Shown here piece by piece: positions 22,090 to 63,355 of a stretch of 64,000 nt of DNA. The notes beneath the pieces were generated by a model, which saw nothing but the letters and a program-made list of their open reading frames with translations, did not search any database and had not been told where the DNA came from. The stretch is from Paramacrobiotus metropolitanus (taxonomy: Eukaryota > Tardigrada > Eutardigrada > Parachela > Macrobiotidae), in assembly GCF_019649055.1 (NCBI RefSeq), contig NW_026570340.1, forward strand, positions 1 to 64,000. Direction: 5' to 3'. The translations under genes were made by a program, and so were the position numbers. Within the stretch, counting starts at the first letter, position 1, and every line of letters begins with the position of its first letter.

Positions 22090-22340
22090 CAGAAAAGTCA
22101 CGTTTAAATTCCGAATATTCGGATTTTATTTTACCGCAGTTTAAATTTCGAATACTCGGAATTCATATTGCCCCATTTTGAATTTCGAGTAATCGGAATT
22201 CAAATTGCGGCCTTTTAAATTTCAAATATTGTATTTGAAAATCTAAAAAAATATTTTTAGATTACTTGGAATTGCAAATACTTGAATTTGAATTCCGAGT
22301 ACTCGGAATTGGTATCGGAATTCTTTCGCATGCAATTTCG
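22090..22340. repeat. Right subterminal palindrome array of the hAT element
   Basis: The same AATTCCGAGTANTCGGAATT-type motifs as at the left end occur at least five times, supporting that both ends belong to one element. Confidence 0.6.
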
Positions 22341-22367
22341 AGCACTTGCGGCAACACTACTAAAAAG

Positions 22368-43620: not shown

Positions 43621-45894
43621 ATGTATAGATATCTTGTCAACAGCCTGCTATTTTTTTGCTGCGCCGCCGGACTCATTAATCGTAATAACAATATTATCGC
43701 GGCGAGCTCGGTGAAGACCTCGGCCTTGGTCCGGCAGCTCCTCGCCGCAGACGACGTCCACGTGCCGCCCAACGCCGACCAGCCCGGTCAGCCGGTGCGC
43801 GTCAACGTCGGCCTTCAGGTTGCCGGTGTACAACATGATGTAGGTACAGACAGAATAGCGGTGGCACTGCACTTACAGGATTTCCGCTGGCTTTTCACAA
43901 TTTTTAACTCGGCCTGGGGTGGCTGGCATTTTACAATTTCTCTTTTCGAGCGATATGTATGTACGTTTACTTAAAAGAACACGCCCGGTTTGTAAATTTT
44001 TTGCGCAAAAATACACGATTCATGGGTAACGCTACGAGTAGGATACCACCGCCCGCTATGTACAAGCGTGTACACCCTTTATAATTATGCGTTATTAGTG
44101 CATTCGGCATGGCTGATGTACCCAAATATTGATTTCGCATAAACAGATTTATCGTAAAATCGAAGAATCGGTTGAAATTATTTATTATCTAATTCGTCGT
44201 AGAATACAATCCATCATTGCTATAATTGTAGCATCGTGGTAAGTGTTCTGTGCACAGTCCCGTCTCATGTTAAGGGATTTGGCCCGGTACATAGCACCAA
44301 ATTTGTGTACATCCACGGCAACTTTCGCTGTCGCGCGCTCCCAAACCCATTTTTTTGCATTGCTTTATGATATTTTGTAGCCAAAGGATTCATATACATA
44401 GGCGAAAAAACCGTTTGTGCGCGCAACATGCGGTTCGGGAGTTATTAGTGAAACAGAATTCCAAAAGTTAAAACGCGCGAGGTGTACCAAAAGTCTCATT
44501 ATGAACCGATACTCTTCAAATTTTGCACGAAAATGCACATTACTATGAAGATCGTTTGGTACCGAACCAGCTTTCTATCATTTTTTTCAAATTTTAAATT
44601 AATTTTTAAAATTTTTGAAATTCATTTTAAAATTTGAAAAAAATGGTAGAAAGCTGGTTCGGTACCAAAACGATCTTCGTAGTAAGATGTGTTTTCGTGA
44701 AACCTTTGGAATTCTGCTTCATTAGTAACTCCCGAAACGGATGTTGCGCGCGCAAACGGATTTCACGCCTACGTTAATTACAAATCCTTTGGCTATAAAA
44801 TGTCATAAAGCAATGCAAAAAAATTGTGTAGGATTGCGCGACAGCGAAAGTTCGCGTGTACAATATGTACCCGAATTTGGTACTATGTACCGGGCCAAAT
44901 CCCTTAATTGGGACAAATTCTTCATCTGAGTCTTTTGATTGAACGAAGCTCGTCAATGTGCATATTGCAATTAAAGTAACACATAGCGGTTATTTTCTAA
45001 GCGTTTAATTGAATGTACAAAATGTGTTTACGCAAGTTTTCACGCTGTATGGCACTTGTTGGGTCTGTTCTAGCGCTCGGAGTCGGATTTGTTGATACTG
45101 CACGGCTTTCTAGACCTGCGCTGGGAAAACAGCCGTTTGGCGTGGGACCCGCTGCAGCACCACAATATCACTGCCGTACGGCTTCCGGCCGACCGTGTCT
45201 GGGTGCCCGACATGACACTGTATAACAGGTAAATATTGATTACTGGCGTACATGCTAATAAACCATCAACGGCAACGCAGAGTTCATTTATATCTATATG
45301 TCTTCTCTTCCTTTGAGTCTATGTTGGTGCATTCTTGAACAGCTACGATGCACGCAGTGGAGTGTTGCCGGCAGACAGGACGCTGGTGTTGGTGTATGCC
45401 AGTGGTAATGTCCTGTGGATACCGCGCGTGGCCTTCCCGCTGAGCTGCAATACAACGCAGAACACAGCCGGTGATAAAGTGCACTGTGCTATTAAACTAG
45501 GTACGTGCAGAAGAATCTGCCGTTTGTTGAGACTAAAATACACATAGTAATACGGTGGTTTTAATGACGCAGCTTCGTGGATGTATGACGCTTCGCTGTA
45601 CGCGTATCGCGTATCGCGTATCGCTGGTGGATGTTGAGTTGCTCACCGACAGAATCGAAACAGCCGGTAGTGTGCCTACGTACAGTATCTGCAGAATAAG
45701 CTTGTACAAAACCTTATGCAATGCTACAGTACAGTGTACTGTTTATTGCAGCCTATTCACATCTGTACAGTGGTTCCCGCTACCGTATAATCGACAGCAA
45801 GATAGAACGCAACGTCGTCTCATACGCCTGCTGCCCCGAGTCCTACCCGTCCATCGACATGACCTTTACCGCCCAACGAGCAGCGGCATCGTAA
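43621..45894 (+). pseudogene. AChBP-like gene copy 1, damaged
   Basis: Exons: 43621-43839, 45074-45228, 45343-45500, 45573-45666, 45752-45894. It encodes a signal peptide (MYRYLVNSLLFFCCAAG), the N-terminal helix and beta strands (VKTSALVRQLLAADDVHV), loop A (WVPDMTLYN), a 12-residue Cys-loop (CNTTQNTAGDKVHC), loop B (SWMYDA) and loop C (YACCPESYPSIDMTF), then stops at TAA. Two defects: the exon 3 acceptor used by the other copies reads GG instead of AG (an AG 13 nt on would keep frame but lose residues), and exon 4 carries a 28-nt insertion with three CGCGTAT units that shifts frame. After TAA the frame continues into QRLAWAAFILNSLLILLH. AATAAA lies at 45996. Confidence 0.7.
44274..44903. 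mobile_element. TTAA-type foldback MITE in intron 1 of copy 1
   Basis: TTAA duplications lie at 44270-44273 and 44904-44907. The inverted ends GGGATTTGGCCCGGTACATAG are near-perfect. The arms meet around 44590-44640. The piggyBac-like TTAA target is clear. Confidence 0.85.
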
Positions 45895-45951
45895 CAGCGA
45901 CTCGCTTGGGCGGCGTTCATACTCAACTCGCTGCTGATACTACTACACTAA

Positions 45952-47246
45952 TGCGCTGGGCTATTCGTCGTCCTAATTACTTTTTACTTATCGTTAATAA
46001 AATTGTAATAATATGTGTGTAATCTGTATGAGAATCGGCTTAAACTTATTAGCGCCGCGGTGTCTGTCCATAAAAGCGCTACCATCTCGGCACAGAACCA
46101 CGTTGGCCTTGTAACGCAGAAGATTAAATTGCCGATAGCGACCCGTGACGGTATCGTCCTCCGAAATGTTTTATGCAGAATGTGGGGATAAGAGCGACAT
46201 TAGTTCACTCATTTACACATAAAAGACCGTAATGCGATCTATTTGCAAGTTGCATACGTAATCGCGTTACCGACATGCACTGGTACCGAGTACAGATACA
46301 ACACATTATTTTTTTTTATTTAAAGGTACTGTAATCCATTAATCCAGCTACACGTTAAGGAAAATGTAATGTAAGTACAGATTCCTGCCGTGTGCATGTA
46401 TATGTACGATTATGTACGGTGTAGGTATGAACGTATGAGCAGCATGTACAATACTCGTATATGCGGATTGATATGGTGCACATTGCACATTATCAGTAAC
46501 TGCTGTACTCTGTATTCCGATGTATCTGAACGTTCTCCTATGTAGCGGGAGTATTTTCCAGTCCAGATAATTTTCTTAGGTTTCCTAGTGAATTGAATTC
46601 AAAGTGCATTAAGGATACGGCAGTGATAAAAACAGTTGAAAATCTGGAGGATTCGTGAAGGATATTAGAGGATTCTGTGGATACAAATCAAAATACGTGC
46701 CCGGAAACATTTAACGTGTACTATCCAAGCCATAGGCGATTTGTGTATCCGGTAATAGGCAATTTTACTTTCTTTCTGCTGGACCTGTAAGAGGGATCAA
46801 ATCTTCAGTAGCTTCAAGGCAGATGGAAAAACGGCACTTTTCAACATGAAGTACCATCACATAGCCATGGCCTTAATTAGAATTTTTTGGAAGTTAAATT
46901 TTTGCCAGCCAGAACCGTAAAAGCTACTTGAGTGTATTATAAAAACCCTTAATTTTAACGTCAAATTGCGCAGAAGTGCCTGAAAATTTCAGAGTAAAGA
47001 AAACTGAAATGGTATAAGAAAAATTCTCTTGCTTATTTGAGAGTAAAAAACTACAGCCTCAACGAAATTCCCGGACTATTCCAAAGTAAGAAAATATAGC
47101 CAGAGATACAACGAACAGCAAGAAACAAAGAATTCACCAAGTATCTGTATGTACGTACATACACGCATTTAGCTAACCGCTACGCTTTGCGCTTATCATT
47201 AGTTATAAGGAATGATCTTATAACACACTTGGTACACTTTTAGACG
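45952..47246. other. Intergenic, copies 1-2, left part
   Basis: It includes the AATAAA at 45996-46001 for copy 1. Otherwise no supported feature. Confidence 0.4.
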
Positions 47247-47862
47247 ATGCTGCGCTACGAATCGCTGTTGCGTTACGGATGGGAGCTCCGGTCTGTAAGC
47301 AGCATAAATGCCGATGCGGTGAAATGGTTGATGAAAAGGTCTGCACGGTTTGTCATGTTTGAAAAGCCAGGGGAGATTCAGGCGTCATGCAAGTCTGAAC
47401 AGCCTAATTCAGCAAAGCCTGGGTTCAGCAAAAGTTCCAGCTATTCTGAGCCACCTGGATTGTGCAGGTCAAATGGCAAGCGGCCGGACGGTTTATCACT
47501 TTTCCCCTGGAAGAACGGCCTCCCTTTGATCTGGGATGTAACAGTGTGCGACACGTTTGCTATGTCGTACATCGCCGGCTCATCAGAAGTATCGGGATCG
47601 GCAGCAGAGGATGCAGAAGAACGAAAGCGGCGTAATTATGAAGAACTCACCGATCGTTATTTTTTCCAACCTCTGGCCTTCGAAACTGCGGAAAGTTGCG
47701 GCGTCAGTACTCGTCAGTTCGTCAATGACGTTGGTCGACGCATAAAAGAACAACAGGAGAGGCGTTTTTGTGGCAGCGCATAAGTGTTGAAATTCAACGT
47801 GGAAATGCCGCTTCTGTTCTTGGAACTGTTGGTTGTTTAAAAGAGCTAGAGGAGTTGTTTTA
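47247..47862 (+). pseudogene. Non-LTR-type retroelement 3' fragment
   Basis: The frame contains NGKRPDGLSLFPWKNGLPL followed by IWDVTVCDTFAMSYI, EDAEERKRRNYEELTDRYFF and an RQFVNDVGRRI block. This is the conserved segment I associate with the C-terminus of reverse-transcriptase proteins of invertebrate retroelements. The usual ending (SVEIQRGNAASVLGT) follows in another frame after 47765, and the upstream part also changes frame (AKVPAIL), so it is a 5'-truncated, decayed copy. A second 3' fragment lies at 63710. Confidence 0.6.
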
Positions 47863-48317
47863 TTTGTTCTAGCTTTTGGTTACTTGAGTCTAAGTTTTTA
47901 AAGGGCATTTTCTTATACAATTTTGAAATAAAAAAATATTTAAAAAACAAGATCTTATAACAATAACTATAATAACTGATAAATAAAAAGAAAGTTATTG
48001 AAATGATATTGTAAATACTGCACGTTGCTTAAAAATCAACTGATGGGAAATTAACTGATTCCCTTTACAAGCGACGCATAGAAAAATACGACGTAAATCC
48101 AACGTGATATATACAGGGCGAATGTAAATGGTTACTAACAACCATTTACAGAATATTGCAGTAGGGCAATTCCCAGCGTCTCTGTTCTGAATTGGCTTAA
48201 TTATCCTTACAATTAGCGCTCCCAATTAAGCAATAGATATCATGCAGAATCGCTTATGACTTGCGATGCCAGAGCTAGATAAGAGCGTAATAATGGATTG
48301 CCGCCAAGATTACACTG
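47863..48317. other. Intergenic spacer
   Basis: AT-rich 3' sequence of the retroelement fragment, then unremarkable sequence. Confidence 0.35.
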
Positions 48318-49077
48318 TAGAGATGGGCATCGGATAGGAATATCCGATTTTATCCTATCCGAATCCGAATTTCGGATAGGATAAAGGATAATTATCCGAA
48401 CCGTTCGGATAGGATTAGGATAAGGATAATGCCCCGTAGCCTACGGATAGGTTCGGATAATGGGTGCTTGTCCGAACTTTATCCGAGAATCGAAATAAAT
48501 TATTTGCGCTGTTAGACTACAAGAACCACAAGCGGTAGCAGTGACACTGCAACATTAAAGATTGTCGCAGCAACAAGAAGCAGTTGTTCTTTTGTGCTAT
48601 GCTGCATAATTAACCGTAACTGCAGCTTTCGTTTCGCTTTTTGTACGGAGCAAGCAACATGATTTACGCATTTGCACCAGTTTATTATTCCATCGGTTTA
48701 ACGTAGGATCGGAACACAACCGTGTCGAAGGCAATGAAGTTTTGATCATCGTTATTGTTAAGGAGAAAATCTTTTTGACTCGGTATATTAATGGCGGCGA
48801 TGTAACTTAATCGATAACGTTATTAACTTTGTCGATAGTAACTTTTTTTAAATTAAAAAAAACTATGCGCTGAATGTCGAGTCTGAATTTTTGGTTTTTT
48901 GTTAAAAATTGTGTTTTTGGACAATTATCCGGTTATACTCGGATATCCGAGGGTCGGATAAGGATAGGATAAGTATAAAGAAATAAAAAAAATTCGGATA
49001 AAAGGTCGGATAAGGATAATTTTAAAAAGTGTCGGAGAGGATAAGGATAAAGAAACCTTATCCGATGCCCATCTCTA
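48318..49077. mobile_element. hAT-type MITE, 760 bp
   Basis: Inverted ends TAGAGATGGGCATCGGATA are flanked by a perfect 8-bp duplication TTACACTG on both sides. Subterminal zones are arrays of GGATAAGGATA and its complement. No transposase ORF. Confidence 0.85.
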
Positions 49078-49089
49078 TTACACTGCACT

Positions 49090-49305
49090 AGTTCCGTAGT
49101 TCGCGAGGTACATAATTATAATGTATGTACTGCGAACGCTTTTTAGCAATCAAGATAAAACTGCATATACACCAGATAGCTGTCACATTCGTTCTTGCAG
49201 CAATACGAGCCTTCGCTATTAAAAGACTGTGTAAATCTGGATTAAGTGGAGGCCCTTAACACTGCTGTTTTGCTGACTATCGACTCCGCCGATAATTGGC
49301 CGACA
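49090..49305 (+). promoter_or_regulatory. Upstream region shared by the AChBP-like copies (copy 2)
   Basis: AGCTGTCACATTCGTTC and AATACGAGCCTTCGCTATTAA, then AATCTGGATTAAG, match the regions before copies 3 and 4. The hAT MITE ends about 10 bp upstream of the conserved block. Confidence 0.4.
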
Positions 49306-51541
49306 ATGTACATCCACAGCCTGATATTTCTTTGCTGCAGCGCCGGGCTAATTTTCCATAATGGCAATATCATCGCGGCCAGCTCGGAGAAGACGTCGGC
49401 CTTGGTACGGCAGCTAATCGCCGCTGACGACATCCACGTGCCGCCCAACGCCGACCAGCCCGGGCAGCCGGTGACCGTCACCGTCAGCCTTAGCGCTGCC
49501 GGCATACAACATGACGTAGGTGCAGGCTGTGCAGCTCACTATGACCCTGCGCTCACAAAATTTTGTTGAATTTTTGCAGCTCTTAACTTCGTCAGTTTGT
49601 ATGTTCCTGTCACGTACTTTGTAAATACATTTTATCAGTTTACGAGCCCGGTGGTTAATTTTGTGCGTAAACGCACCGCGAAAAATGCAGATTCATGGGT
49701 TAAGGTGATCTCCATACTCTTTAAAAGACATGGACATTTATGGAAAATCCGCTCACCGTTGAAGAGTTATGGGGAGTGCGAGTTGCGCTATTCAAACGCA
49801 ACTCGCACTCCTCATAACAAACCGAGTTGTGAGCTATACCACGTTACGCTATCATAGACCGTATATATAACGTTCATGAGTGTTACGTACCTTAGCGTAA
49901 AGTTTTCCTTGGTAGCGAGTTCACCCGTGGTCGTACACCTATGGTTATGTGTGTGTTCACCTATGGCCCTATGGTCACAGTCCACGCTTTCGCCTTTCTC
50001 ATGCCCTTGTTAGCCATCTGTATAGACAACGAGAAATTATCAAATACTTAGTCGATTCCTTTGATGTCTTGTTATTTCCGGCTCAGGTCGCTGTCTAAGC
50101 TCATGTTTGTTTTGTTGTTCATTTAGTTCTCAGTTGAGTATTAATTACTGAACAGGCTGAAACTTTATAGTGTATTGCGCACTTTAATACGGATGCTGCA
50201 CGCGTATCGGTATCACTAATAACTCGGGGTAAACAAAAATAGTTAAGTTACATATAACTGCCAAGGTTTGGTCCGTACTCCATACCAAGGCTCGCCACGC
50301 CCCACTGTACGCGATCCGTTACAATGTCCGTGCAACTGGCAGGGCTGGTGCACGACAAATATAGATGTCGTATAAACATATATACCGCAAATCGACGAAT
50401 TACAGTTACTCGAAGACTTTTTCCATCGAATTTGTTTTTTATAATAAATCATCGTAAAACTGAATTTATTATTGCTATACTTAATGTACATCTGTGTTCT
50501 AGAGCGCCAGCATTGCGCTTAATACGCACTACTCTACATGTACTTTTATGGAAGGAATTACTGTAATCACTTAGCTTCCAAATACTATAGAAAGGCGTGA
50601 CAAAAAACGCTCTTCGTGGCATCTCGCGCGCGGTATTAGGATCTCACTGTGTTCGGTGCAAACTACTATAATTATACCGGTAATTTTCCCGCTTTGGCGC
50701 CAGCATTCATGTTGTACTTGTTTCTGTCTGCTTTAAGCGTCGGCAGCCGGATGTGGTCATACTGCACGGAACCCTGGAGCTGCAATGGAAGAACAGCCGT
50801 CTGACGTGGGAACCGCAGCAGCACAACAATATTACCCTCGTACAGCTCCCTGTCGAACATGTCTGGCTACCCGACATTACGCTGTATAACAGGTTAATTA
50901 GTATTGTACGTCATATGATCAACTGCAACGTCAGGCGCATTTCTACGTTGTGTTTCTAGAGCTTCTGCTAGTGCGTCCTCTAGCTGCGACGATGCCCGCA
51001 GTCAAGTGTACCCGGCGAACCGGAGGATGCTCTCGGTGCATTCGGAGGGCTCGGTCACGTGGATAGCGCCAGTGTCCTTCCCGCTCAGCTGTAATAACAC
51101 AGTCGGCGGTGGTGAAGTGCACTGCGCCATTAAACTAGGTATGTACATTCATCGGCAGCGCAAGTTGCGAATTCGTCGTTTGTCGCGAGTACATTAAATG
51201 ATTTGGTTGTTTTTAATGTAGCTTCGTGGACGTACCATGGTTTGCTGATTGACTTGAAGGCCGGCAGTGACAAAATTCAGGCAATCGGTAGTTGATTTTA
51301 GTAGTCTCGAGATATACAGTACATACAGCACGATGTCTATAATGCGGTAAATATTACGGGGCACTGTACACTGTACTGTGCATTGGTGATAGCAGACTAT
51401 GTCGATTCTTCCCCGCTCGGGTCAAACTACCGTATAACCAACAGCACGGTAGTCCGCAACGTCGTCTTCTACGCCTGCTGCCCAGAATTATTCCCGTCCA
51501 TCGACATGACCTTTACAGCCAAAAGAGCAGCAGCGTCGTAG
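49306..51541 (+). CDS. AChBP-like ligand-binding-domain protein, copy 2
   Basis: Exons: 49306-49515, 50738-50892, 50972-51138, 51222-51287, 51396-51541; GT-AG introns in phases 0, 2, 1, 1; 247 aa. A signal peptide (MYIHSLIFLCCSAG) is followed by the Cys-loop-receptor ligand-binding fold: SEKTSALVRQLIAADDI, LELQWKNSRLTWEP, loop A WLPDITLYN, a short Cys-loop (CNNTVGGGEVHC, 10 residues between Cys), loop B SWTYHG and loop C FYACCPELFPSIDM. N-glycosylation sequons NIT and NNT are present. There are no transmembrane helices M1-M4, as in AChBPs. The loop D aromatic position is Thr here. The stop is TAG right after AAAS, with an in-frame hydrophobic tail (VFILSSLLLVAR) after it. The product is predicted secreted. 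Confidence 0.75.
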
Positions 51542-51598
51542 CTACGTCTCGGTCCGGGTGTCTTCATACTCAGCTCGCTGCTACTAGTGGCACGCTAA

Positions 51599-52044
51599 TA
51601 CTTTAATGCATTCCCAGCTGATTCGTCATGCCCTTACGTTCTGTTAACATTAACGCCGCTGGTACACGAAAGTACTGCTCTGTACGGAATTATTATAAAA
51701 GCGGAGGAATGTTGTCAAAGGGTTTCTTAAAAATCTTGTCTAATCTCGCCAATTTCGTTGCGCTGTGGTGTGTAAGTGCTTGGTTGTCTTTACAGCACAG
51801 AATATAACAAATACAACTTTACATTTTTAATACAAATTTAACAATTTTAATCAGTGTGAACCTACGGAAGCATACGATATGTGCATTCTCTGTTGCCTAT
51901 TAGAATATGGAGACTTTAGATCTTCTTGCCTAACATAGAAGAGGATGGTGTGTGAGCATGGAGTTTTACGTTTCAAAATTCAAATGTATATATACTTACG
52001 CTTTAATTATTATCTTGTTCTTTCTGCTTCTTAAACAATATCCT
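51599..52044. other. 3' flank of copy 2
   Basis: No supported feature. Confidence 0.4.
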
Positions 52045-52240
52045 AATCCAGATTCAGATCTATATTGCCACGAATGGGATACACCAGAGCCGGCAACCAG
52101 AAAAGACTGACCAAAACCAATATTATAATATGAAAGCCCGTAGTCGAAAACCCGGCCAGATAGTATTAATTTCTTTCAAAACCTCTTCCGCTTCGAACGC
52201 CAAAGCGGAAGAGTTTTGACTACCTTCACCAAATGTAACT
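52045..52240. repeat. Left direct repeat flanking a minisatellite
   Basis: About 90 percent identical by eye to 53629-53815 (shared GCCACGAATGGGATACACCA and AAAACCCGGCCAGATAGTAT). This copy alone has an extra CTCTTCCGCTT...AAGCGGAAGAG hairpin. Confidence 0.7.
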
Positions 52241-52409
52241 AAATTATTATAATAATCATTGTCATCGTGCTATTTTTAATCAGGCAGTGTTGCCACGTAA
52301 ACCAACTAAAATATACTTAAGTATTTCCCACTACTTAAAATAGCAGAATGAATTTAATTAGCAGACCGTTATTACGACAAGAACGGCTACATATCTAACG
52401 TCCGTCTGT

Positions 52410-53335
52410 TCAATCAGTGATAGAGCGAACTACCGCCACTATTCAGTGCACAAACCCGTTATTTCAGGGAGTGACCGAAATACCACTATATTCTAGTTAA
52501 AATAGCCCGCTAAGCCAGTGATCGACCGAACTACCACTATGGATATCTATGTGAGCGGTTGACTGAGCTGTCATTACCGTCCGATGCACCAAGCCCAGTG
52601 GGTGAGCGGGTGACCGAGCTACCACTGCCCTCCATGCGCAGAGCCCGGTAGGTGAGCGGGTGAAAAGCCCGATAGGGAACGAGTGACCGAGCTTTCATTA
52701 TTGTAGAGTGTACGTGAGTGACCGAACTACCAGTCTACCACTGTGGTCCAGTTGACAGAGCCAAAAGGTACGAATAAAAACGATTAAAACAGAAATTCAA
52801 ATCGATCGCCCCTGTCTACAAAAAAAGCGAAGGCGAAGCCGAGGTGACCGAGCTATCACTACTATACCGTGCACAGAGTCCGCTAGGTAAACGAGTGCAC
52901 AGAGCCCGATAGGTGAGCGGGTGACCGAGCTACCACTGCTGTCCGGCGCAGAAACCCGTTAGGTGAACTAGTGACCGAGCCACCACTACTGTCCATGCAG
53001 AGCCCGGTCGGTGAGCGGGTGACCGAGCTGTCACTACTGTTCAGTGTACAGAGCCCGTTAGGTGAAACGAGTGACCGAGCTCCACTACTGTCCGGCGCAG
53101 AAAGTCCGTTAGGTGAGCGGGTGACCGAGTTCCCACTACTGTCCGGTGCAGAGAGTCTGTTAGGTGAGCAAGCGACCGAGCTACCACTACTGTCCATCAA
53201 ACAGAACCGTTAGGTGCGCAAGTAATCTAGGTACCACTACTGACCAGACATGCACTACCGGGCTCACACCACTTTCCAGTGAAAAGAGCAAACGAAGTGA
53301 CGAGTCACCGAACTAGTGATCCAGTGCACTATCAC
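52410..53335. repeat. Minisatellite, about 51-bp unit
   Basis: Repeats of GTGAGCGGGTGACCGAGCTA followed by CCACTACTGTCC and a CAGAGCCCGTTAG-type spacer. The densest part is 52850-53230, where the period is about 51 bp, so some strands give repetitive but probably non-functional ORFs. Confidence 0.75.
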
Positions 53336-53628
53336 TGTTTCGAATTGCATACCTTATAAACTGACATTTCGGCTTTCTTTTCGGGTAGGGGATATCGTAA
53401 AAATTATCTGTACCAGACTGTATGTACATTGTACAGCCAGAGGGAATGCTTTCAAGGTTGAGAGAATCATGAGCTGATTTTTATATAAAATTCGTGTTTG
53501 CCCTATTGCTTGTACCGATCATGTTTCGTTTCGTTTCATGTTATTCCAATAAATATTCATTCAAATTCAAATAAAATGGCCATGGACCACAAGAAACGCG
53601 GAGGCGAAGCCGAGGCTGTTTCTTGTTC

Positions 53629-53815
53629 AGATCTATATAGCCACGAATGGGATACACCAGAGCCGGCAAACCAGAAAAGACTGACCCAAACCAGTATTAT
53701 ACTCTGAAGCCCGTATTCGAAAACCCGGCCAGATAGTATTCATTTCTTTCAAAACCAAAGCGGAAGAGTTTTGACTAGCTTCACCGAATGCAACTAAATT
53801 ATTATCAGATTCCTT
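53629..53815. repeat. Right direct repeat flanking a minisatellite
   Basis: Same orientation as 52045-52240, so the minisatellite sits between two direct repeats, as in a composite or terminal-repeat element. GCGGAGGCGAAGCCGAGG before it also recurs near 52820. Confidence 0.7.
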
Positions 53816-54569
53816 ATATTCATACAATCTTGCCGTCCAAAACGTAACTAAATTTGTTTTTTATGGATTCGTCAACGCGTGGTCAGTTTAAGTCAAGCTT
53901 GGTCTTGAGAAACTCCATATTTTTCGTAGGGTGTCATCCTGAATTTTAATTTTTTTTAAAACGTTCTGGTCAGAAAATTTTTCAAACGGTTCTGAAGTAT
54001 AGGAAAACGTAAGGAGTACTTAAGAATACTTAAGCATTCATAAGGAAAGATTACGTACTGTACTGTAACCATGGATATGTGTTTATTAGTAAATAAGTAT
54101 GTAAGTAAAATTCTGAAAGAATTAGCCGAATAAAACGATCACAAAGTACGGCTGTGTATTTTTGCCGTCCAACCCGTAAGACGTAAGTGGTCATAGGAAG
54201 CAAGTAAAAGAATCGTAGAGCAGTCAGATATTTGAATCCGTCCAAGAGGGTAGTGCCGAGCGCGGAGCGCGAGGCATACCTTGTAACCATTATTATACAA
54301 ACGTTGTGTGCGATACTTTACTGTTTGATGTACTCGTACTTGGTTGCATTTTCAAACTGCAAAGTTCTTTGGCAGTGTACGAAACGTGGCAGCTTTGTGT
54401 CAAGGTACACCATAGCATCGCTAACCGTATCGTGATAAGTTGTGGACCTCTTTTTGCTCATTGGCGTACCCCATTGTATCCTTACAGTATTCTTTACGTA
54501 TCCCTCAGGTATCCCATTATGAATTATAAGATATCCTACGAAAACCTAGAAAAACCTACGAATACTTGA
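53816..54569. other. Non-coding spacer
   Basis: No supported gene or repeat. Confidence 0.35.
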
Positions 54570-54785
54570 CGGAAGTGACCCAGTACATGGTACAAATTCG
54601 TGTACGTGCATGAAAACTTTAACGTTTTTTGTTTAATTTTTTTGAGTTTTCTTTCAGCCATAACTAACGAACCGGATTTTGCACGCATAAGCGGTTTGTT
54701 CGGGAATGCGCGACAGTTGATTTTTGCATGCTCGTACACCAATTTGGTACCATGTGCCACTCCCTTAAAAAAATACCGTGTCACT
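54570..54785. mobile_element. Small foldback MITE related to the TTAA family
   Basis: Ends GTGACCCAGTACATGGTACAAATTCGTG and GTACCATGTGCCACTCCCTTAA are inverted relatives (shared core GTACATGGTACAAAT against its complement). Shorter than the other family members. Confidence 0.5.
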
Positions 54786-56289
54786 CCCTTAAACAAATTA
54801 ACGGGATACATGAAGCATACACGAAGGATGTTGTAGAATACGCAGGTTAAAAAGAGTGACAGCATTAGCAATATTCGCAATACGTGCAGAATGCAGAATA
54901 CTACGTTATGTTTGCATGCGTACCACACTATCCTCCACCTACCTTCAAATATCCTGCGGAATACAGCTTTGGTAGTTACGAATAACTGTTACCATCGTAT
55001 CCCAAGGCATATGTTTGCCGTATCCTCAATGTATCCGTCAAGTATTCCGATAAGTATCCGTCAAGTATTCCGGTAATTATCCGTCAAATATCCGGGGCAT
55101 CTCTCAAGTATCCCGATAATATTCTGAGATTTTTCAGTGGAAAGCTTTCGGAATGTGTAATGGAGACTGGAGAGATACGGTGGGATACGGCAGTGGTTAA
55201 AAAAAGCATAAAATTTAGAAGATACATGGAGCATACGTAGAGGATACTGTGGATACAAATCAAAGCACATGCCTGGAAAAATTAAACGTTTACTAACCAT
55301 GTCCTGTATTACGCGACGCATAGGCAGTTATATACCTTCCTGCTTCCGGATATCGTAGTCCGGCGGCGTGCAATGCCGTACATGCCCGGTTTCTACCGGT
55401 GCGTGTTCGGGCAGGATTTGCGTGCCCGTCGACATCCTAGCAGCCTTTGACGGTCCCCTCTGGCCGCCACCCGGGGCCACCAGGTCCCACTGCCGTGTCC
55501 TATCCGTTCCGTCCCTCCTGGAAAGCCTCCTCCTGACCACGTACAACTACTGGATGTGGCGCCACCACCGTGGGTTTATCCGTGGGTTCCCCCGGAGCTT
55601 TTATAATGCCCGCTGCACGGGTACCGACCACGTGACGTCTAACCCGAATCGGTGGTGATCAGCGAGTGCGCCAGGAGTCCCGGCCGCGCTACATCCGGGA
55701 TAATACATCCACTCGCGGCCGGTATTGAGAACTGCGCTGTCCGTCGTGATGTCTATCGTTCGGCGCCAGTACAGGGGAACATGCAACGGCCGCCCAGCTG
55801 TTTGTTATTCGGCATCGTCTCCGCCGCGAGCAAAGTGTCCTTACGTGGCGGATGCTGCCGGAAACATTTTATTGTTGCTGCTCCTAATGTTTTTATTTGG
55901 AGTATGCAAAATGTACAGGCGTTTTGATGTGGCGCACGCTCACAGATGGCGCCATGTACGCACGGTAGTTTGCATCGCATTCGCAACCGGCAACAGTCCA
56001 GTCAGTGCACTCCGGAATATACGTAGTTAGTATTGTAGTAGGCAATTCCAAAATGTTTGAATGTTTGTCCTTCGTAATTTTTTTTAACTGACGATTAATT
56101 AGTAGCTGGAATCAAAATGTCAAGACAGTAAAATGCCGCAGGGTTAGTTTGTGCTGAAGCTTTTCAAAACCGAGAATTCAAAACCGACTGAAAATCATAC
56201 AGACTTCGACGCTGGAAAAGGTCACGACCGCCCGGGGTGGCAGCGTGATGCGGTTTTGTACTGAAAACAATTTCGGTCGCATGTAGACT
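54786..56289. other. Spacer with GC-rich exon-like fragment
   Basis: Around 55600-55760 the minus strand reads SAVLNTGREWMYYPGCSAAG then DHHRFGLDVTW, coding-like but without start or splice context. A shorter relative (CNTGRDW) occurs on the minus strand near 61160. Probably relics of one unknown gene or element. Confidence 0.25.
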
Positions 56290-56599
56290 TGATTAAGAAC
56301 TGCGATGCAGGAGCTGCTCGGGTAGGTAAAAACGTTATATGCGAGTACATATCGCCAGTTGTACACTGCACCAATTCGCAAGGTGCATTGCATGTACGAG
56401 CGCGAACGCTTTTTTAATGCGAATCAAGATACAAAGTGCATGAAATGGTACGAAATTGATCTTATACCAGATAGCGGCCACATTCATTCCTGTAATTGCA
56501 GTATAATCGCGGAACATGGGTAAAGCTGGATTAGTTCTTGGCCATTAACGTTGCCGTTGTTGTTGACTGTTGATTCCGCTAATACATAATCTGCCCACA
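56290..56599 (+). promoter_or_regulatory. Upstream region shared by the AChBP-like copies (copy 3)
   Basis: GATGCAGGAGC, ACTGCACCAATTCGC, CACATTCATTCCTGTAAT and TTCTTGGCCATTAACG are shared in order with the 300 bp before copy 4. Confidence 0.45.
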
Positions 56600-58993
56600 A
56601 TGTACCCCAGTAGCATATTATTTTTTTGCTGCAGCGCCGGACTAATTTGCCATAAAAATATAATCGCGGCCAGCTCGGTGAAGACGTCGGCCTTGGTCCG
56701 CCAACTTATCGCCGCTGAAGACGTCCACGTGCCGCCCAACGCCGACCAGCCCGGTCAGCCCGTGCTCGTCGAAGTCAGTCTCCAAGTTACCGGTGTACAA
56801 CATGATGTAGGTACAGGTGCAGTGACGCTGACACTGCGCTTAAGCGCACAAATTTGCTTGTATTTGAAACTCCCACGTTCTTCGATTTTTATATTCAACG
56901 TATTCGATTTCAGTATATTGTGAATCGATAGTTACCTGTAATAACAGATTGTGTATATTTACCCCCATACTTTTCATCGAGCACGCGTTCACTTAACATA
57001 AAAATACTGTGGACAGCGTCACTCATCACGTGTTCGTGGCGCCTGGCAGATGTGTGCTAATCAGCTTCATCTTTTATTAGCTACATTATCAATAGATTCA
57101 TATATCCTTACGTCCTTATTTTTTGGAAATTATCTCCTAAAGCAAGATTAATTTTTTCAATAAGTTGATAATTTTATAAAATAGAGCATCGCACAAACGT
57201 TCCTACCTTTATCTTCAAAAAAGTGTTAAGTTTTGGAGAAGGTTTACCTCTGATTTTTTGAGCCTCCAGAGTTTCGAAATTTTAAAAATATCTGGAAACC
57301 TGAGTGCCTCAAGATCTCACGGTCTAAATTGTCTAATTTATATGTGATTTCTAAATACCTAAAAGCTGGCCCGCGGCCCGTATACCGCATTCATTCACGT
57401 AGCGGCTCTTTGATACTGGTGGTAGCTTGGGCATTCACCAACCTTGAAACCTAATTAATATGTGTTTAATTTATTTTAATAAATACTGAATAGCTTGACT
57501 GCATGGCTGAAAATCTTACAATTAATAGCTAAAGATGCAGCCTGCGACGTCACCTTGGACAACCGTTGATTGTTTCCCACAGGTTTCCATTAATTCTGCG
57601 CTGAAATACCGGCTGAATGGCTTTTTATGGGCATCCTGTAAATGATCTCACTCCATCCATTTTATCACCGTTTAAATATTATCTGTCGTGCCAAAAAATT
57701 CAAGTTCTCAGTTCGTTAGATCGGCAATATAAAGTTACATCAAAAACATGAAAACAAACCGTGAAAAAAGCAAACAAGAAGAAAATTACGGAGGCTTTCA
57801 CAGTTGTTATGAAACTGGTCCAATTTAACCGGAAAGGTAGATAACTGTCCGCATTTCTACATGTTTAAAATATTTTCGTAGCTAGCCTCGCTGGGGTTTT
57901 ATATTAGAAATATTTCTCAAAATCTTTTTTATTGCTCTACGAAGTATATTTTGCGTTTCTTTCATTCTTCCATACCTCAAACACAACTGGTGGCGCCCTA
58001 GCGCGACCGATACTTGTAGTTACATTACATATGTTCTGTTATGGTTATATATTTGCATCTGCCTGCGTTCGGTGTACACTAATTTATGTGTACAAGTACA
58101 CCGAGCACGCTTCTGTCTGATCAGCTATGTATCTGTGACTCCGTAGCGTCCGGAGTCGGATCTGGTCATAGTGCTGGGATTTCTGGACCTGAACTGGAGG
58201 GACAGCCGGCTGACGTGGGAACCTCAGGAGCACCACAATATTACTGCCGTACACCTCCCCGCCGACCGCGTCTGGCTGCCGGATATTACGCTGTATAACA
58301 GGTTAGAATTAGCGGACTGCAGTCTATCTTCTGACTGTACATACGGACGATACGATCAACTGTTTTCTCTGGGCCTTTTCTCTGCGTCTAGTGCATTCAT
58401 TAACAGCTACGATACGCGCAGTCGAGCTGTGTTCCCCGGCGAAAGACAGCTGGTGTCGGTGCGTTCGGACGGCACTGTCATGTGGATCCCGCGCGTGACC
58501 TTCCCGTTGAGCTGTAATAGCACGCGGAATGCAGCCGGTGATGAAGTGCATTGTGCTATCAAACTAGGTACAGTATATGCATCGGCAGTTGAACTGCGGA
58601 TTGGCCGTTTGTTAAAAATAAATGATAATGATTTAATTGGTTACGATGTAGCTTCGTGGACGTACGACGCTTCGCAGATCGACCTTCGGACGTGGGGCGA
58701 CATAACTCACAGACACGGTAGTGTGTCTGTATATTATAGAATATGAGTGAAGCTGTATTGCACAACAGCGCATGTTGACTATTGCAGACTACTCAAATCT
58801 GTATTCCTCCCGTGATTCCAGCTACCGTATAATCGACAGCACGGCAGTCCGCAACGAGGTCTCCTACTCTTGCTGCCCACAAGCCTACCCGTCCATCGAC
58901 ATAACCTTTACGGCAAGAAGTGCAGCAGTATCGCCACTGCGACTCGCTTGGGCTGCTTTCATACTCAACTCGCTGCTAATAATAATACGGTAA
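56600..58993 (+). CDS. AChBP-like ligand-binding-domain protein, copy 3, GPI-type tail
   Basis: Exons: 56600-56806, 58147-58301, 58392-58567, 58652-58717, 58788-58993; phases 0, 2, 1, 1; 269 aa, all frames intact. Signal peptide MYPSSILFFCCSAG; helix and strands VKTSALVRQLIAAEDVHV and FLDLNWRDSRLTWEP; loop A WLPDITLYN; Cys-loop CNSTRNAAGDEVHC with 12 residues between Cys, the AChBP length, against 13 with an FPF motif in channels; loop B SWTYDASQIDL; loop C YSCCPQAYPSIDITF. After the last strand comes a small-residue site (SAAVS), then a C-terminal hydrophobic tail (LAWAAFILNSLLIII) with no pore helices. This resembles a GPI-attachment signal. NIT and NST sequons. AATAAA at 59090. Intron 1 is 1.3 kb and shows no other gene. 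Confidence 0.8.
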
Positions 58994-59738
58994 TACCACT
59001 TAAATACAAGTAATAATGCGGTTGGATGTGCACCGGTACTTTGTTCTGCTACTATACATGTATAATAATGCCGCTGGCAAATTCTGTATAATAAAATTAA
59101 TGAGAGTCCTGTGCACCGAATGTTGGCCTTGTAATGCAGTGCAGGCGTTTAACTGCAGATAACGCTCAGTGCCACTATCGTCAGGGAATCGTCAGAAACG
59201 TTTTATCATTCAACTTTTATGCAAGATTTGCGATAAGAGCGATGTTAGTCTACAGGCCAAACCCTACACGACAAAACAGTAAAACCAGCACGTTGAAAAG
59301 TAAGTATAAAATTTAAAGAAGACCGGTTTGTAAAGAGGAATTTGGTACATTTGTCTGCATGGAAAAATTTTGGAATCTTATTGTAATAATATCTCCCGAA
59401 CACCAATAGTGTATACAAAATTCGGCTACACAATGTATCGTAAACAACGTAAAAAAGTGTAGAGGAGGATGTTTTGGTGCGTCGACCCGAGCTTAGCGCC
59501 ATGTAGCGCTTTCGTAATGAATCACATGCGGTGTTCGTAAATCCAAGCCTTCAATAAAGTTCTACAGTAATCTTCTTCGCTATCTTCGCCTGTCGGCCTC
59601 GGTCACGCTGAGCTCCTTCCTGTGCGCACGATACCGTTCCAATACGGTTATAATCGGCCGCCGGCCGTTCATAAAAATTTTAAGGTCTGATCTCTGTACA
59701 GTGCAAATGTCTATGTCATATATATATATATATATATA
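58994..59738. other. 3' flank of copy 3
   Basis: AATAAA at 59090-59095. A GC-rich stretch at 59585-59680 is open in two minus-strand frames but not assignable. Confidence 0.4.
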
Positions 59739-59933
59739 AGAGGGGATATCAGTGGCTCACCTTGATGATCCCTGTACTTGCTGGCGTCATCCGGCTGGAG
59801 CACGCCGTTGTGGCTATACATGGTGCTTACGTACCGCGCCTGATTTAGCCATATGTCTGCCGTAACGTCACACTCCAGGCGGGTGACGACAGCAAAACAG
59901 GGGATTATCAAGGTGCGTTACTGACATCCCCTC
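59739..59933. mobile_element. Foldback MITE in a TA-repeat, family A
   Basis: Inverted arms AGGGGATATCAGTGGCTCACCTTG-like and CAAGGTGCGTTACTGACATCCCCT-like (shared core CACCTTGATNATCCC) are inserted in a (TA)n tract. The loop shares TGGCTATACAT and TACGTACCGCGCC, in reverse, with the element at 63375-63564. Confidence 0.65.
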
Positions 59934-61454
59934 GTATATATATATGCCCGTGGTTATATTAAAATATTTATGGTGCGTTTGTACCTTATGATAAAATTAA
60001 TAGCAGAATACCACGGGGTGTCGCATTCTGAAGGTGTGTGTTAAATTGTTATTGCCGGCGGTTAAAGTACATTTGTGTAGTGCTAATAATTTTATTATTG
60101 TAATGGCGTCGCATTAATTTCAATGCGGACATGGGACTTCTGTCTCCGGAATTGCAGTTGTTGGTGGTTCTAAAGAGCTTTCTGAAAAAAATGAATATGG
60201 AAGCGGAAATAATGCCTTGGTTGGTGGATAACTGAACTCCAGTACGCATATTGCATCAGGTATGTTACTGTTTAGCGTAATTCGAATTGCTTGTACAATC
60301 TTAAAATATAAATGGATTTGTATGTATAAGAGTAAGTGTGATCCTTGTTAGAAAATAATAATATTATGTGGAGAATATACTATAAGGTACGGGAACGGAA
60401 ACCGGAAGCATCGCACACTGGTGTCGGTTCTGTTATGTTCTGTTGTTCACCGTTATACAAGCAGAACTGCTTTAATGGCACTAGATACATTCTTTGCACC
60501 TACCTTAACCATTTTTAATGATTAAATTATTAACCAATCAAGCCCCAAGAAGTGCTTTACTTCGTAATAACTTAAATATTCGTAATAACTTAAGTATTCG
60601 CATATTAACCGTCCCATGGGTATAGATTATTATGCGGCGCGTAGGCCTTATTGTACAACGTGACACCGGTTTCTCCCCTTACGCCACAAGTTCTCCACAA
60701 ATTTAACTCTAATTTATTTTAACTGAAATCGCATCTGAGCGGGTAGCCCATTTCCGGATACGGTGACAGTCTAGCATGGGATAAAAAAATTATCATCATA
60801 CGAGAAATTCTTACGGAGTACACTCGCACACTATGAGCAGCTAAAAAAAACCTGGACAGCGGTCATTTAATTAAAACATCAGGCCGTGTACAATGTATTT
60901 TCAAAACAGCAAAGGGAATCCATGACAAGGAGCCTTATCGTTTCCGGCAGGTCAGTCGCGAGAAACGCTCGTAGCGGCAACTTACAACTTAATTATGTAA
61001 GGTACGTAATTATAGGCGCTACCGTTGAGAGAAGATATGCGGGCGTTGTGACAGTGTCGGCATGTGCGGATGGAGGAGCGTGATCGTCTTCCTTTCTACT
61101 CCCGGATATATAACCGATAGCTGCTACTGGTATATATCCGGGATAATAACAACCAGTCGCGGCCGGTGTTGCAAATCACTTTACAATAAACATTCAAATG
61201 ACTTTACCTGCATTCCTCTCTTGCAACAAACGATAATATCATAGGTTAGAAATATGTACGTTGTTCACTGGTTTGGAACTGTGGAAGCACAGGGATGCAG
61301 TATGTTGTCGACCGGCCGAATTATGGCGAGCTCATCCGGCGGCTGCAAAAACTTGCAAGTTGTAAAAACATCGGCAGCGACGCTGTAGTGTTACCTATCC
61401 TAAAAGGTACAGCGGTGCCGATTCCTTATTATGCGATCAATATTATGCAGACTT
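59934..61454. other. Intergenic, copies 3-4
   Basis: No supported gene. Relic CNTGRDW fragment on the minus strand near 61160 (see 54786-56289). Confidence 0.35.
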
Positions 61455-61780
61455 GATTGAAAACATCGATGCAGGAGCCACGTACAAAGGTAATATGGGA
61501 GTGTCGCCAGTGCAGGGCAGTGTATTGTACATACTGCACCAGTTCGCTAAGTACAGTACATTACACTACATGTAAGAGCGCGAGCGCTACTTACTCTGTA
61601 TCAATCAAGATAAAGAAAATTCAAATGGTGCGAAATCGATCTAATAACAGATTGCTGTCACGTTCATTCCTGTTATTTTGTAGTATAAACGCCGAGCCTG
61701 TGTAAAATTGGATTAATTCTTGGCCGTTAACGCTCCCGTGCTTGTTGACTGTTGATTCCGCTGATAAGTTGCCGTGCACG
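61455..61780 (+). promoter_or_regulatory. Upstream region shared by the AChBP-like copies (copy 4)
   Basis: GATGCAGGAGCC, ACTGCACCAGTTCGC, AGAGCGCGAGCGCT, AATCAAGATAAA, CACGTTCATTCCTGTTAT and TTCTTGGCCGTTAACGCT, in the same order as before copy 3. Confidence 0.45.
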
Positions 61781-63355
61781 ATGTATGTTAATAGTCTGAT
61801 ATTTCTGTGCTGCAGTGCCGGACTAATTGGACATCATAACAATATCATCGCGGCCAGCTCGGTGAAGACCTCGGCCTTGGTCCGGCAACTCCTCGCCGCT
61901 GAAGACGTCCACGCGCCGCCCAACGCCGACCAGCCGCGCGAACCGGTGGTCGTCGACGTTAGCCTACAGGCTACCGGGATACAACATGATGTAGGTACAG
62001 TAACGGCATACGTAACGGTAAACAAGGTTTCCTGGTATGCGGCTCTCATGGTACTTCCATTTTAACTCCAACGTATTTCTCAAAAGGATGTTCAACCGAT
62101 AACTAATTAAAATAATACAAAGAGCCTTCCAAAAGTAACTTTCCCTATTTTATATCTCTCTCCACAGATGCATTCAGCTCTTCATACAGATATTTTTATG
62201 AACGTCATCCATCGTTTAGTCAAAGTAAAATATTATCTAGGCTAATTGGGACTGCATTACTAAATACACTAAAACTTTAGCTTTCGCTCACTCTCAATCA
62301 CAGTTTTGTAAATAATGTCCTTCTAAAGCTGAATGATTTGTATACACACACGATTAAATTCATTGTTGTGAAAACCGTTTGCCGCGCAACATCCGGTTCA
62401 TAGCACTTTTCCATAATTTTCAAATGAATTTTAAAATTTTTGAATTCATTTTAAAGTCGGAAAAAAATGCTATGGATCTGGTATTGGTTCATTTTCGACT
62501 TTTTGGTCATGTGTCTTCTGCAGCAAAGTTTCAAGAAGATCGGATAATAACCATAGAAGTACTTGTGGTACACAACAATTCATTAATTAAATTTTTCGTC
62601 CATGTTCTGCGCGCAAAACGTTTTTTTCAGAACAATGTATACAAATCATTTAGCTTTTGAAGGACATCAAGTATCATTACAAAATTGATTCGGAGTGCCC
62701 GAAAGCGAAAGGTTTTGTGTATGTATCCAATTTTTGACACCATGTACATTTTGATACGGGCTATTTCCCTTTAGTAGTGGAATTTGAAATTTCATTGTGT
62801 TCGGTTAAAATGAATTTTCTATATACCTGTCATTTTCCCGCTTGTAATGAATTATACCACAAGCCTTCACGGTGTACTTGTCAAGTTGTTCCGTCTCGTC
62901 TGCTACGTGGCCATAGCGTCGGGAGTCGGATTTGGTAATCTTCCTCGGATTTCTGGATCTGAGCTGGACGAACAGCCGGCTGACATGGGACCCGCTGCAG
63001 CACCACAACATCACCGCCGTACGCCTTCCGGCCGACCGTGTCTGGCTGCCCGACATCACGCTGTATAACAGGTTATTATTGATTAGTAGCGGACGGGCGT
63101 CCGTCTTCTGACTGTAGGTTCATAGATACGATCAATGGCAATGCCGGGCGCATGTCTCCTCTGTTTTCTTTTCGTCTAGTGCGTTCATTAACAGCTACGA
63201 TACGCGCAGTCGCGCTGTGTTCCCCGAAGAAAAACAGTTGGTCTCGGTGCGTTCGGACGGCGCTGTCACGTGGATACCGCGCGTGACCTTCCCGTTGAGC
63301 TGTAATAGCACGCGGAATACAGCCGGTGATGAAGTGCATTGTGTTATCAAACTAG
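61781..63355 (+). CDS. AChBP-like ligand-binding-domain protein, copy 4, 3' end missing
   Basis: Exons: 61781-61990, 62917-63071, 63180-63355, with the same lengths and phases as copy 3. Signal peptide MYVNSLIFLCCSAG, VKTSALVRQLLAAEDVH, FLDLSWTNSRLTWDP, loop A WLPDITLYN, 12-residue Cys-loop CNSTRNTAGDEVHC. Exon 3 ends at a proper donor (CTAG|GTACAA). Exons 4 and 5 (loops B and C, C-terminus) are not in the remaining 640 bp, which are filled by mobile fragments. Either intron 3 is expanded and they lie beyond the window, or the copy is truncated. Confidence 0.7.
62243..62773. mobile_element. TTAA-family foldback MITE in intron 1 of copy 4, degraded
   Basis: Shared blocks CTTTCGCTCACTCTCAATCA, TCTAAAGCTGAATGATTTG, a central AATTCATTTTAAA hairpin and AAGCGAAAGGTTTTGTGTA at the right. 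The ends no longer show TTAA. Confidence 0.6.

What the first reader, a model, noticed from the sequence alone, without database searches (positions are those of the whole stretch)
43621..63355. Tandem array of four AChBP-like genes (ligand-binding domain only)
Four genes with identical five-exon layout encode a secreted nicotinic-type ligand-binding domain and nothing else: signal peptide, loop A WxPDxTLYN, Cys-loop, loop B SWTY, loop C YxCC, then a stop just after the last beta strand. Free-standing acetylcholine-binding proteins are established in molluscs and annelids. A clustered array in what looks like a tardigrade or other ecdysozoan would be new to me. The sequence shows the architecture; ligand binding and function are inferred.
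Basis: partly seen in the sequence, partly recalled or inferred. Interest (0 to 1): 0.92.

Follow-up and report, generated by a model that had tools for sequence, protein, structure and literature searches.

The report
Tardigrade acetylcholine-binding-protein-like gene cluster
A tardigrade genome carries a cluster of eight genes that encode only the ligand-binding part of a nicotinic receptor, several of them with a greasy tail that could hold the protein on the cell surface; this widens a protein family best known from snails but is not a new kind of system.

Summary
The genome is the tardigrade Paramacrobiotus metropolitanus. Eight ligand-binding-domain-only (LBD) copies, not four, were found on the contig, with no M1-M4 match. 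Gene 4's exons 4-5 lie beyond the window. Five of eight frames are intact (g2, g3, g4, g6, g7), two are frameshifted (g1, g5), one is degraded (g8). Most site residues and the LBD fold are kept; intact copies show dN below dS. A Hypsibius protein and three unnamed database proteins join them in one clade (100/99). A putative spider AChBP is already published, and LBD-only proteins of springtails and gnats sit in databases, so this is a tardigrade branch of a known kind. Unusual points: the tail, the altered or missing Cys-loop, and RefSeq models splicing g1 exons onto g3. Ligand binding, anchoring and function are inferred.

The parts
43621..43839 (+). g1 exon 1 (signal-like N-terminus, N-terminal helix, beta1)
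   Evidence: exact match to RefSeq proteins P0002, P0003, P0009
45074..45228 (+). g1 exon 2 (loop D W, loop A WVPDMTLYN)
   Evidence: PF02931 match
45343..45500 (+). g1 exon 3 (Cys-loop CNTTQNTAGDKVHC)
   Evidence: P0009
45573..45666 (+). g1 exon 4 (loop B SWMY) with about 28 nt of TATCGCG-like repeat (about 45599-45626, placed by eye) that shifts the frame
   Evidence: 94 nt against 66 nt in g2/g3; RefSeq P0009 ends here
45752..45894 (+). g1 exon 5 region (loop C YACC) ending at TAA before the tail; tail-like sequence continues after the stop
49306..49515 (+). g2 exon 1
   Evidence: P0008
50738..50892 (+). g2 exon 2
50984..51138 (+). g2 exon 3 (my model; RefSeq starts it upstream near 50961)
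51222..51287 (+). g2 exon 4 (loop B SWTY)
51396..51541 (+). g2 exon 5 (loop C YACC), stop TAG before the tail; intact 243-aa frame
56600..56806 (+). g3 exon 1 (RefSeq P0001 uses an earlier donor, after 56773)
58147..58301 (+). g3 exon 2
58407..58567 (+). g3 exon 3 (RefSeq starts at about 58390)
58652..58717 (+). g3 exon 4 (loop B SWTY)
58788..58993 (+). g3 exon 5 (loop C YSCC, beta10, tail, stop)
58916..58993 (+). g3 C-terminal hydrophobic tail RSAAVSPLRLAWAAFILNSLLIIIR plus stop: anchor or GPI-signal candidate
   Evidence: homologous stretch in 8 of 8 copies and the C4 paralogue
61781..61990 (+). g4 exon 1
   Evidence: P0006
62917..63071 (+). g4 exon 2
63195..63355 (+). g4 exon 3; exons 4 and 5 lie outside the window at contig 66027-66095 and 66180-66337

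Best explanation
A tandem family of tardigrade acetylcholine-binding-protein-like genes, partly decaying. Each intact copy makes a signal-peptide-led nicotinic ligand-binding domain without a channel. By analogy with AChBP the subunits should form rings of five with a cholinergic site at each subunit interface, capturing acetylcholine or a nicotinic toxin outside the cell. Copies with an intact frame and open tail (g3, g6, g7) are most likely held on the cell surface by a GPI signal or a short membrane helix; copies whose tail is cut by a stop (g2, g4, and the C4 paralogue) are released. Shown: gene models, no channel exons found, fold match, nearly complete site residues, tail homology, dN below dS. 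Inferred: signal peptide cleavage, pentamer, ligand, anchoring, buffering or trapping function.
For: Eight LBD copies and no PF02932 match on the contig. Ten RefSeq proteins map exon by exon. Pfam LBD E 2e-24 to 2e-33 in 5 of 5 intact models. PDB sequence matches of g3 led by Aplysia AChBP, its chimeras and nAChR LBDs, best E 2.6e-26, 285 distinct sequences, 60 shown. AlphaFold model of g7 (RefSeq P0004) mean pLDDT 82.5, Foldseek E 3e-19 to an nAChR and 9e-19 to an AChBP. Loop D W, loop A Y, loop B W and first loop C Y kept in 5 of 5 intact copies; vicinal CC in 4 of 5 (not g6); second loop C Y in 4 of 5 (F in g2) (residue roles recalled). dN/dS 0.31-0.54 over 10 of 10 pairs; 0 of 1000 bootstraps at or above 1 in nine pairs, 1 of 1000 in g2-g4. 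Tail pN/pS 0.35 in g3/g6/g7, 0 of 1000 at or above 1. Tail helix in the model, residues 255-272. One clade with Hypsibius P0016 and P0015 (94/83), and with P0123 and P0124 added (100/99).
Against: No RNA-seq reads, binding data or proteomics could be examined. A random open frame on the contig ends in a similarly hydrophobic 25-mer in 138 of 3386 cases, so one tail alone is weak. The tail ends in Arg and g7 has an Arg inside the hydrophobic stretch. The former tails of the truncated copies also show pN/pS below 1 (0.53, 8 of 1000 bootstraps at or above 1), so the constraint is not cleanly tied to an open tail. The relatives outside Paramacrobiotus (P0015, P0016, P0123, P0124) have no such tail. 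Two copies are frameshifted and one is degraded. g6 lacks the vicinal cysteines. Exon 4 and the LBD part of exon 5, which carry loops B and C, are the least constrained (0.64 and 0.58).
Confidence: 0.6

Rival explanations
1. All copies are simply secreted soluble AChBPs; the 3' hydrophobic stretch is an extension without anchoring function.
For: Stops remove it in 3 of 8 copies and in the C4 paralogue; Hypsibius P0016 and unnamed P0015, P0123, P0124 have no tail; charged residues in or at the end of the tail; 138 of 3386 random frame ends look as hydrophobic.
Against: Homologous stretch at 9 of 9 P. metropolitanus loci, open in five; pN/pS 0.35-0.41 in the tail-bearing sets; the layout small residues, short spacer, about 15 hydrophobic residues, stop is that of a GPI signal (recalled rule).
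Confidence: 0.3
2. A decaying set of truncated nAChR paralogues with little or no function left.
For: g1, g5 and g8 are broken; g4 lost part of the tail; dN/dS 0.31-0.54 is only moderate; the tail could in principle be an M1 relic.
Against: Five of eight frames are intact at synonymous distances of 0.36-0.72; dN below dS in 10 of 10 pairs; a clade that includes a Hypsibius LBD-only protein suggests long persistence; the M1-relic idea finds no sequence support (shuffles reach the score in 141-1698 of 2000 over 12 of 12 comparisons).
Confidence: 0.15
3. Regulatory subunits: the LBD-only proteins co-assemble with full-length nAChR subunits and act as dominant negatives or assembly decoys rather than free ligand traps.
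For: Nicotinic principal-face residues kept; many loci elsewhere in the genome with both LBD and M1-M4 matches (paired by eye).
Against: Altered Cys-loop without the FPFD tip (CNSTRNAAGDEVHC in g3, against CSINVKYFPFDIQDC in the C20 receptor), as expected of domains that no longer face a channel; nothing here tests co-assembly.
Confidence: 0.12
4. Exons of ordinary full-length receptors whose channel exons lie in unassembled or unrecognised DNA.
For: The assembly is in 533 contigs, the PF02932 search is exon-wise and its counts are lower bounds.
Against: In-frame stops end exon 5 in the five copies that keep frame; after g1-g4 the next copy begins 3-20 kb downstream; 0 of 54 PF02932 matches on the contig; the RefSeq models have no channel domain.
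Confidence: 0.03

Closest known systems
Molluscan and annelid acetylcholine-binding proteins (Lymnaea, Aplysia, Biomphalaria, Capitella)
   Same: LBD only, signal-led, vicinal Cys in loop C, aromatic site, non-canonical Cys-loop, predicted fold
   Different: 24-29 percent identity in the listed structural matches to AChBPs; separate clade in the tree, grouping with mollusc or annelid LBD-only proteins not supported; eight-copy cluster with a C-terminal hydrophobic tail
Putative spider AChBP of Cupiennius salei (PMC4569296)
   Same: LBD-only in an ecdysozoan, atypical Cys-loop (16 residues there; 10-13 here)
LBD-only proteins of springtails and a fungus gnat (P0050, P0071, P0073) and similar unnamed proteins
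   Same: About 220-300 aa, signal-led, YxCC, no channel
   Different: Own clade (99/99), keep a P(Y/L)GEQ-type Cys-loop, no tail
Hypsibius exemplaris P0016 and unnamed P0015, P0123, P0124
   Same: Same clade (100/99) and a shared N-terminal PNAD/PNSD motif
   Different: 4 of 4 lack both Cys-loop cysteines and the tail; P0124 also lacks the vicinal Cys
Full-length nAChR subunits of the same genome (contigs C15, C20, C23)
   Same: LBD fold family, loops A-D, an exon end at LYN
   Different: They have M1-M4 and a 13-residue Cys-loop with FPFD; the array has neither

Membership tests
Acetylcholine-binding protein (AChBP) | Neur_chan_LBD domain as the only domain | tested here: met
   5 of 5 intact models; no PF02932 match on the contig
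Acetylcholine-binding protein (AChBP) | Cys-loop LBD fold | tested here: met
   AlphaFold model of P0004 (g7) and Foldseek match; one copy modelled, as a monomer
Acetylcholine-binding protein (AChBP) | Aromatic box and vicinal cysteines of an alpha-type site | tested here: met
   full set in 3 of 5 intact copies (g3, g4, g7); g2 has F for the second loop C Tyr; g6 lacks CC. Residue roles recalled
Acetylcholine-binding protein (AChBP) | Secreted, water-soluble | tested here: inconclusive
   Signal-like N-termini; g2, g4 and C4 end without the hydrophobic stretch, but g3, g6 and g7 carry it. No signal-peptide or GPI predictor available
Acetylcholine-binding protein (AChBP) | Homopentamer | not testable with these tools
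   Monomer prediction only
Acetylcholine-binding protein (AChBP) | Binds acetylcholine and nicotinic ligands | not testable with these tools
   No binding data
Acetylcholine-binding protein (AChBP) | Common descent with mollusc or annelid AChBP apart from nAChRs | tested here: inconclusive
   Deep forks open; only the clade with Hypsibius is supported
Nicotinic acetylcholine receptor subunit | M1-M4 channel domain | tested here: not met
   0 of 54 PF02932 matches on contig C120; 11 of 11 RefSeq proteins LBD only
GPI-anchored protein | Cleavable C-terminal signal (small omega site, spacer, hydrophobic tail) | tested here: inconclusive
   Sequence layout fits in g3; charged residues argue against; 15-residue hydrophobicity 2.07-2.71 in g3, g5-g8

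The most novel reading that the evidence does not exclude
Surface-anchored AChBPs: a Cys-loop ligand-binding pentamer hung on the membrane without a channel, from which soluble paralogues arose more than once by nonsense mutations in or before the tail, in an array whose transcripts also splice the 5' exons of one copy (g1) onto the 3' exons of another (g3), so that a copy broken in exon 4 still supplies a promoter and N-terminal half for hybrid subunits.
Probability: 0.25. Interest if true: 0.72.

Novelty: new variant of a known kind. Interest (0 to 1): 0.5.

Why it matters
The physiological role of AChBPs is still debated for molluscs (passages of PMC3423370). A multi-copy family in a tardigrade, in tailed and truncated versions and with a version lacking the vicinal cysteines (g6), would let one test whether such proteins buffer acetylcholine, trap toxins or act at the cell surface. 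It also suggests that LBD-only nicotinic proteins recur in Ecdysozoa more widely than their database names ('acetylcholine receptor subunit') show.

Tried and rejected
M1 origin of the tail: 12 tail-to-M1 comparisons, none convincing (lowest 141 of 2000 shuffles). Trees with mollusc and annelid LBD-only proteins: deep placement unresolved. Tree rows were picked by hand (39 and 47 rows, out of 122 and 218 proteins held plus my models); g1, g5 and g8 were left out of the trees and of the dN/dS counts because their frames are broken, and P0014 was left out. Other LBD matches without a nearby PF02932 match (C26, C14 at 266k and 1344k, C128 twice, C15 at 739k, C11 at 1313k, C4 at 928k; read off by eye): six regions covering all of these except C14 at 266k were fetched; only C4 at 928k is a close relative, the others are divergent and not resolved, so no claim is made on them. 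Literature searches for a tardigrade AChBP, GPI with AChBP, springtail AChBP, insect AChBP and tardigrade Cys-loop receptors listed no title or abstract start of such a report in the open-access library (listings only, apart from the passages named); subscription papers are not covered. The Capitella AChBP paper is not held, and whether P0129 is that protein was not checked. Segment-wise dN/dS stopped with a script error after its first lines and was redone.
Full report
What and where. The window is bases 1-64000 of contig C120 (410,675 bp) of a 169.8-Mb genome in 533 contigs. A protein search with the g3 model returned RefSeq proteins of Paramacrobiotus metropolitanus, Tardigrada, on a contig of exactly 410,675 bp, and 10 of 10 of those proteins map back onto C120 exon by exon, with one residue at a junction unplaced. 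The published assembly is 170.5 Mb in 684 scaffolds, Nanopore plus Illumina (passages of PMC8277472).

Copies. Searching C120:1-130000 with exon peptides gives eight copies: g1 43621, g2 49306, g3 56600, g4 61781 (all +, g4 ending at 66337 outside the window), g5 86617-87929 (+), g6 97749-95435, g7 108429-107158 and g8 about 113747-112940 (all -). In the seven modelled copies 28 of 28 introns are GT-AG. Five of eight frames are intact: g2 243, g3 264, g4 250, g6 266, g7 268 aa. g1 has a 28-nt excess in exon 4; g5 exon 4 is 65 nt, one short of g2 and g3, and loses frame; g8 has no recognisable exon 1 and is broken in exons 3 and 5. A one-base misassembly is reported for another gene of this assembly (PMC11191345), so g5 may be an assembly error. 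A ninth, dispersed copy with the same exon order lies on contig C4 near 928 kb (P0011, 246 aa).

No channel. Across the genome the LBD family gives 84 exon matches, exon 2 of 8 of 8 clustered copies among them, and the membrane family PF02932 gives 54, none on C120; the tool calls such counts lower bounds. RefSeq models of this locus have the LBD domain only (11 of 11 proteins, one of them the C4 copy).

The tail. That is so for g1 and g2. In g3 the frame goes on as RSAAVSPLRLAWAAFILNSLLIIIR before the stop, and g5, g6, g7 and g8 have the homologous open tail in exon 5; in g4 a stop falls inside it; in g1, g2 and the C4 copy a stop falls before it and tail-like sequence follows the stop. The simplest reading is that the tail is older than the cluster and was cut off more than once; g1 and g2 stop at the same codon and may share one event. 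The AlphaFold model has a helix at 255-272 there. The 15-residue hydrophobicity maximum is 2.07-2.71 in g3 and g5-g8; 138 of 3386 random frame ends of the stretch reach 1.9. pN/pS in the tail is 0.35 (g3, g6, g7; 0 of 1000 bootstraps at or above 1), 0.38 with g5 (0 of 1000), 0.41 with g5 and g8 (3 of 1000), and 0.53 in the truncated g1, g2, g4 (8 of 1000); the contrast is in the expected direction but not decisive. Among the 39 proteins of alignment A3, 4 have this tail (P0001, P0002, P0004, P0005, all from this cluster). I read it as a GPI signal or short anchor; this is inference. Origin from M1 is not supported.

The binding site. The intact copies keep loop D W, loop A Y, loop B W and the first loop C Y in 5 of 5; vicinal cysteines in 4 of 5 (g6 has SG); the second loop C Y in 4 of 5 (g2 has F) (roles of these residues recalled). 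The Cys-loop is hydrophilic and lacks the FPFD tip of the C15, C20 and C23 receptors of the same animal, with 10 (g2), 12 (g1, g3, g4, g7) or 13 (g6) residues between the cysteines. This is what one expects where no channel needs to be contacted. By sequence the nearest solved structures are Aplysia AChBP, its chimeras and nAChR LBDs with near-equal scores; by fold, nAChR LBDs and AChBPs again. Neither comparison separates AChBP from nAChR.

Selection. Pairwise dN/dS over the mature LBD is 0.31-0.54 for 10 of 10 pairs of intact copies; 0 of 1000 codon bootstraps reach 1 in nine pairs and 1 of 1000 in g2-g4. Exon 4 and the exon 5 LBD part are the least constrained (0.64 and 0.58), exons 1-3 more (0.30-0.35). 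The pattern fits working genes with divergent surroundings of loops B and C, not a dead array, although three of eight copies are broken.

Transcripts. I could not see reads. RefSeq names carry isoform numbers, and the proteins show alternative forms: g3 with an early donor in exon 1 (P0001), exon 4 skipping (P0003, P0007), a retained intron (P0010), and g1 exons 1-2 joined to g3 exons 3-5 over g2 (P0002; P0003 also skips exon 4). Such isoforms normally come from RNA-seq evidence (recalled), so the cluster is probably transcribed and g1 may serve as an alternative 5' part of g3. Mis-mapping between similar copies remains possible.

Relatives. A profile search lists 120 of 247 hits; I looked at the ends of 46 listed proteins with the LBD but no PF02932 label. 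Six of the 46 (P0017, P0029, P0034, P0079, P0099, P0100) have membrane-like C-termini or M1; by eye the other 40, except P0097 and P0118, end within about 35 residues of loop C. They include Hypsibius exemplaris, springtails, fungus gnats (Bradysia) and many unnamed proteins on contigs of about 1 kb. In a 39-row tree the P. metropolitanus copies, Hypsibius P0016 and unnamed P0015 form one clade (94/83); in a 47-row tree with P0123 and P0124 added the clade has 100/99, springtail and gnat proteins with unnamed ones form another (99/99), and the join to mollusc and annelid proteins is unresolved. 4 of 4 non-Paramacrobiotus members lack both Cys-loop cysteines, and the Capitella LBD-only entry P0129 does too. 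A third search gave no named protein of a tardigrade genus other than Hypsibius and Paramacrobiotus among the 120 of 276 listed; many listed rows have no name.

Known or new. A putative spider AChBP, the first outside molluscs and one annelid, was reported in 2015 (abstract and passages of PMC4569296). AChBP functions proposed for molluscs are suppression of cholinergic transmission, non-synaptic modulation, toxin binding and, for a relative, shell mineral control (passages of PMC3423370). No title or abstract start on a tardigrade AChBP or on an anchored AChBP turned up in the searched library (listings). The cluster is therefore a new tardigrade branch of a known kind, with an unusual tail. 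Function most likely: extracellular capture of acetylcholine or of nicotinic toxins, partly at the cell surface.

Counts were restated per call, the habitat of the unnamed database proteins is no longer claimed, results against the tail were added, and confidence was set at 0.60 instead of 0.62 because the weaker tail controls are now stated in full.

Noticed in passing
window 13095-17507 and 22262-25168 (-): Long open frames of retrotransposons: reverse transcriptase, RNase H and integrase zinc-binding domains in the first, gag-type aspartyl protease in the second.
   Followed up: partly
window 52611-53195 (+): Diverged tandem repeats around TGACCGAGCTACCACTACTGTCC, 7 matches with up to 3 mismatches against a mean of 0.00 in 100 shuffles, between g2 and g3.
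   Followed up: partly
window about 44220-44900 and 62350-62760: AT-rich, partly palindromic, MITE-like stretches sharing motifs such as CGCGCAACAT(G/C)CGGTTC inside the first introns of g1 and g4 (read by eye).
   Followed up: no
L012 (C120:95435-97749, -), g6: Copy with intact frame whose loop C has lost the vicinal cysteines (YYPSGPEAYP), a natural non-alpha LBD-only protein.
   Followed up: partly
P0016 (Hypsibius), P0015, P0123, P0124, P0129 (Capitella): LBD-only proteins without either Cys-loop cysteine, i.e. loss of the disulphide that names the superfamily.
   Followed up: partly
P0050, P0071, P0073, P0075 and many unnamed proteins (sources jgi, lgn): Numerous LBD-only proteins, most with signal-like N-termini, in springtails, fungus gnats and unnamed sequences on contigs of about 1 kb, named as acetylcholine receptor subunits or not at all.
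   Followed up: partly
L026 (C128:93501-100000), L024 (C26), L027 (C14), L028 (C15), L029 (C11): More divergent LBD exons with no PF02932 match nearby; could be further LBD-only genes or receptors with unrecognised channel exons.
   Followed up: partly
window 47247-47783 (+): 178-aa open frame between g1 and g2 without Pfam match; looks like a retroelement remnant (resemblance recalled).
   Followed up: no
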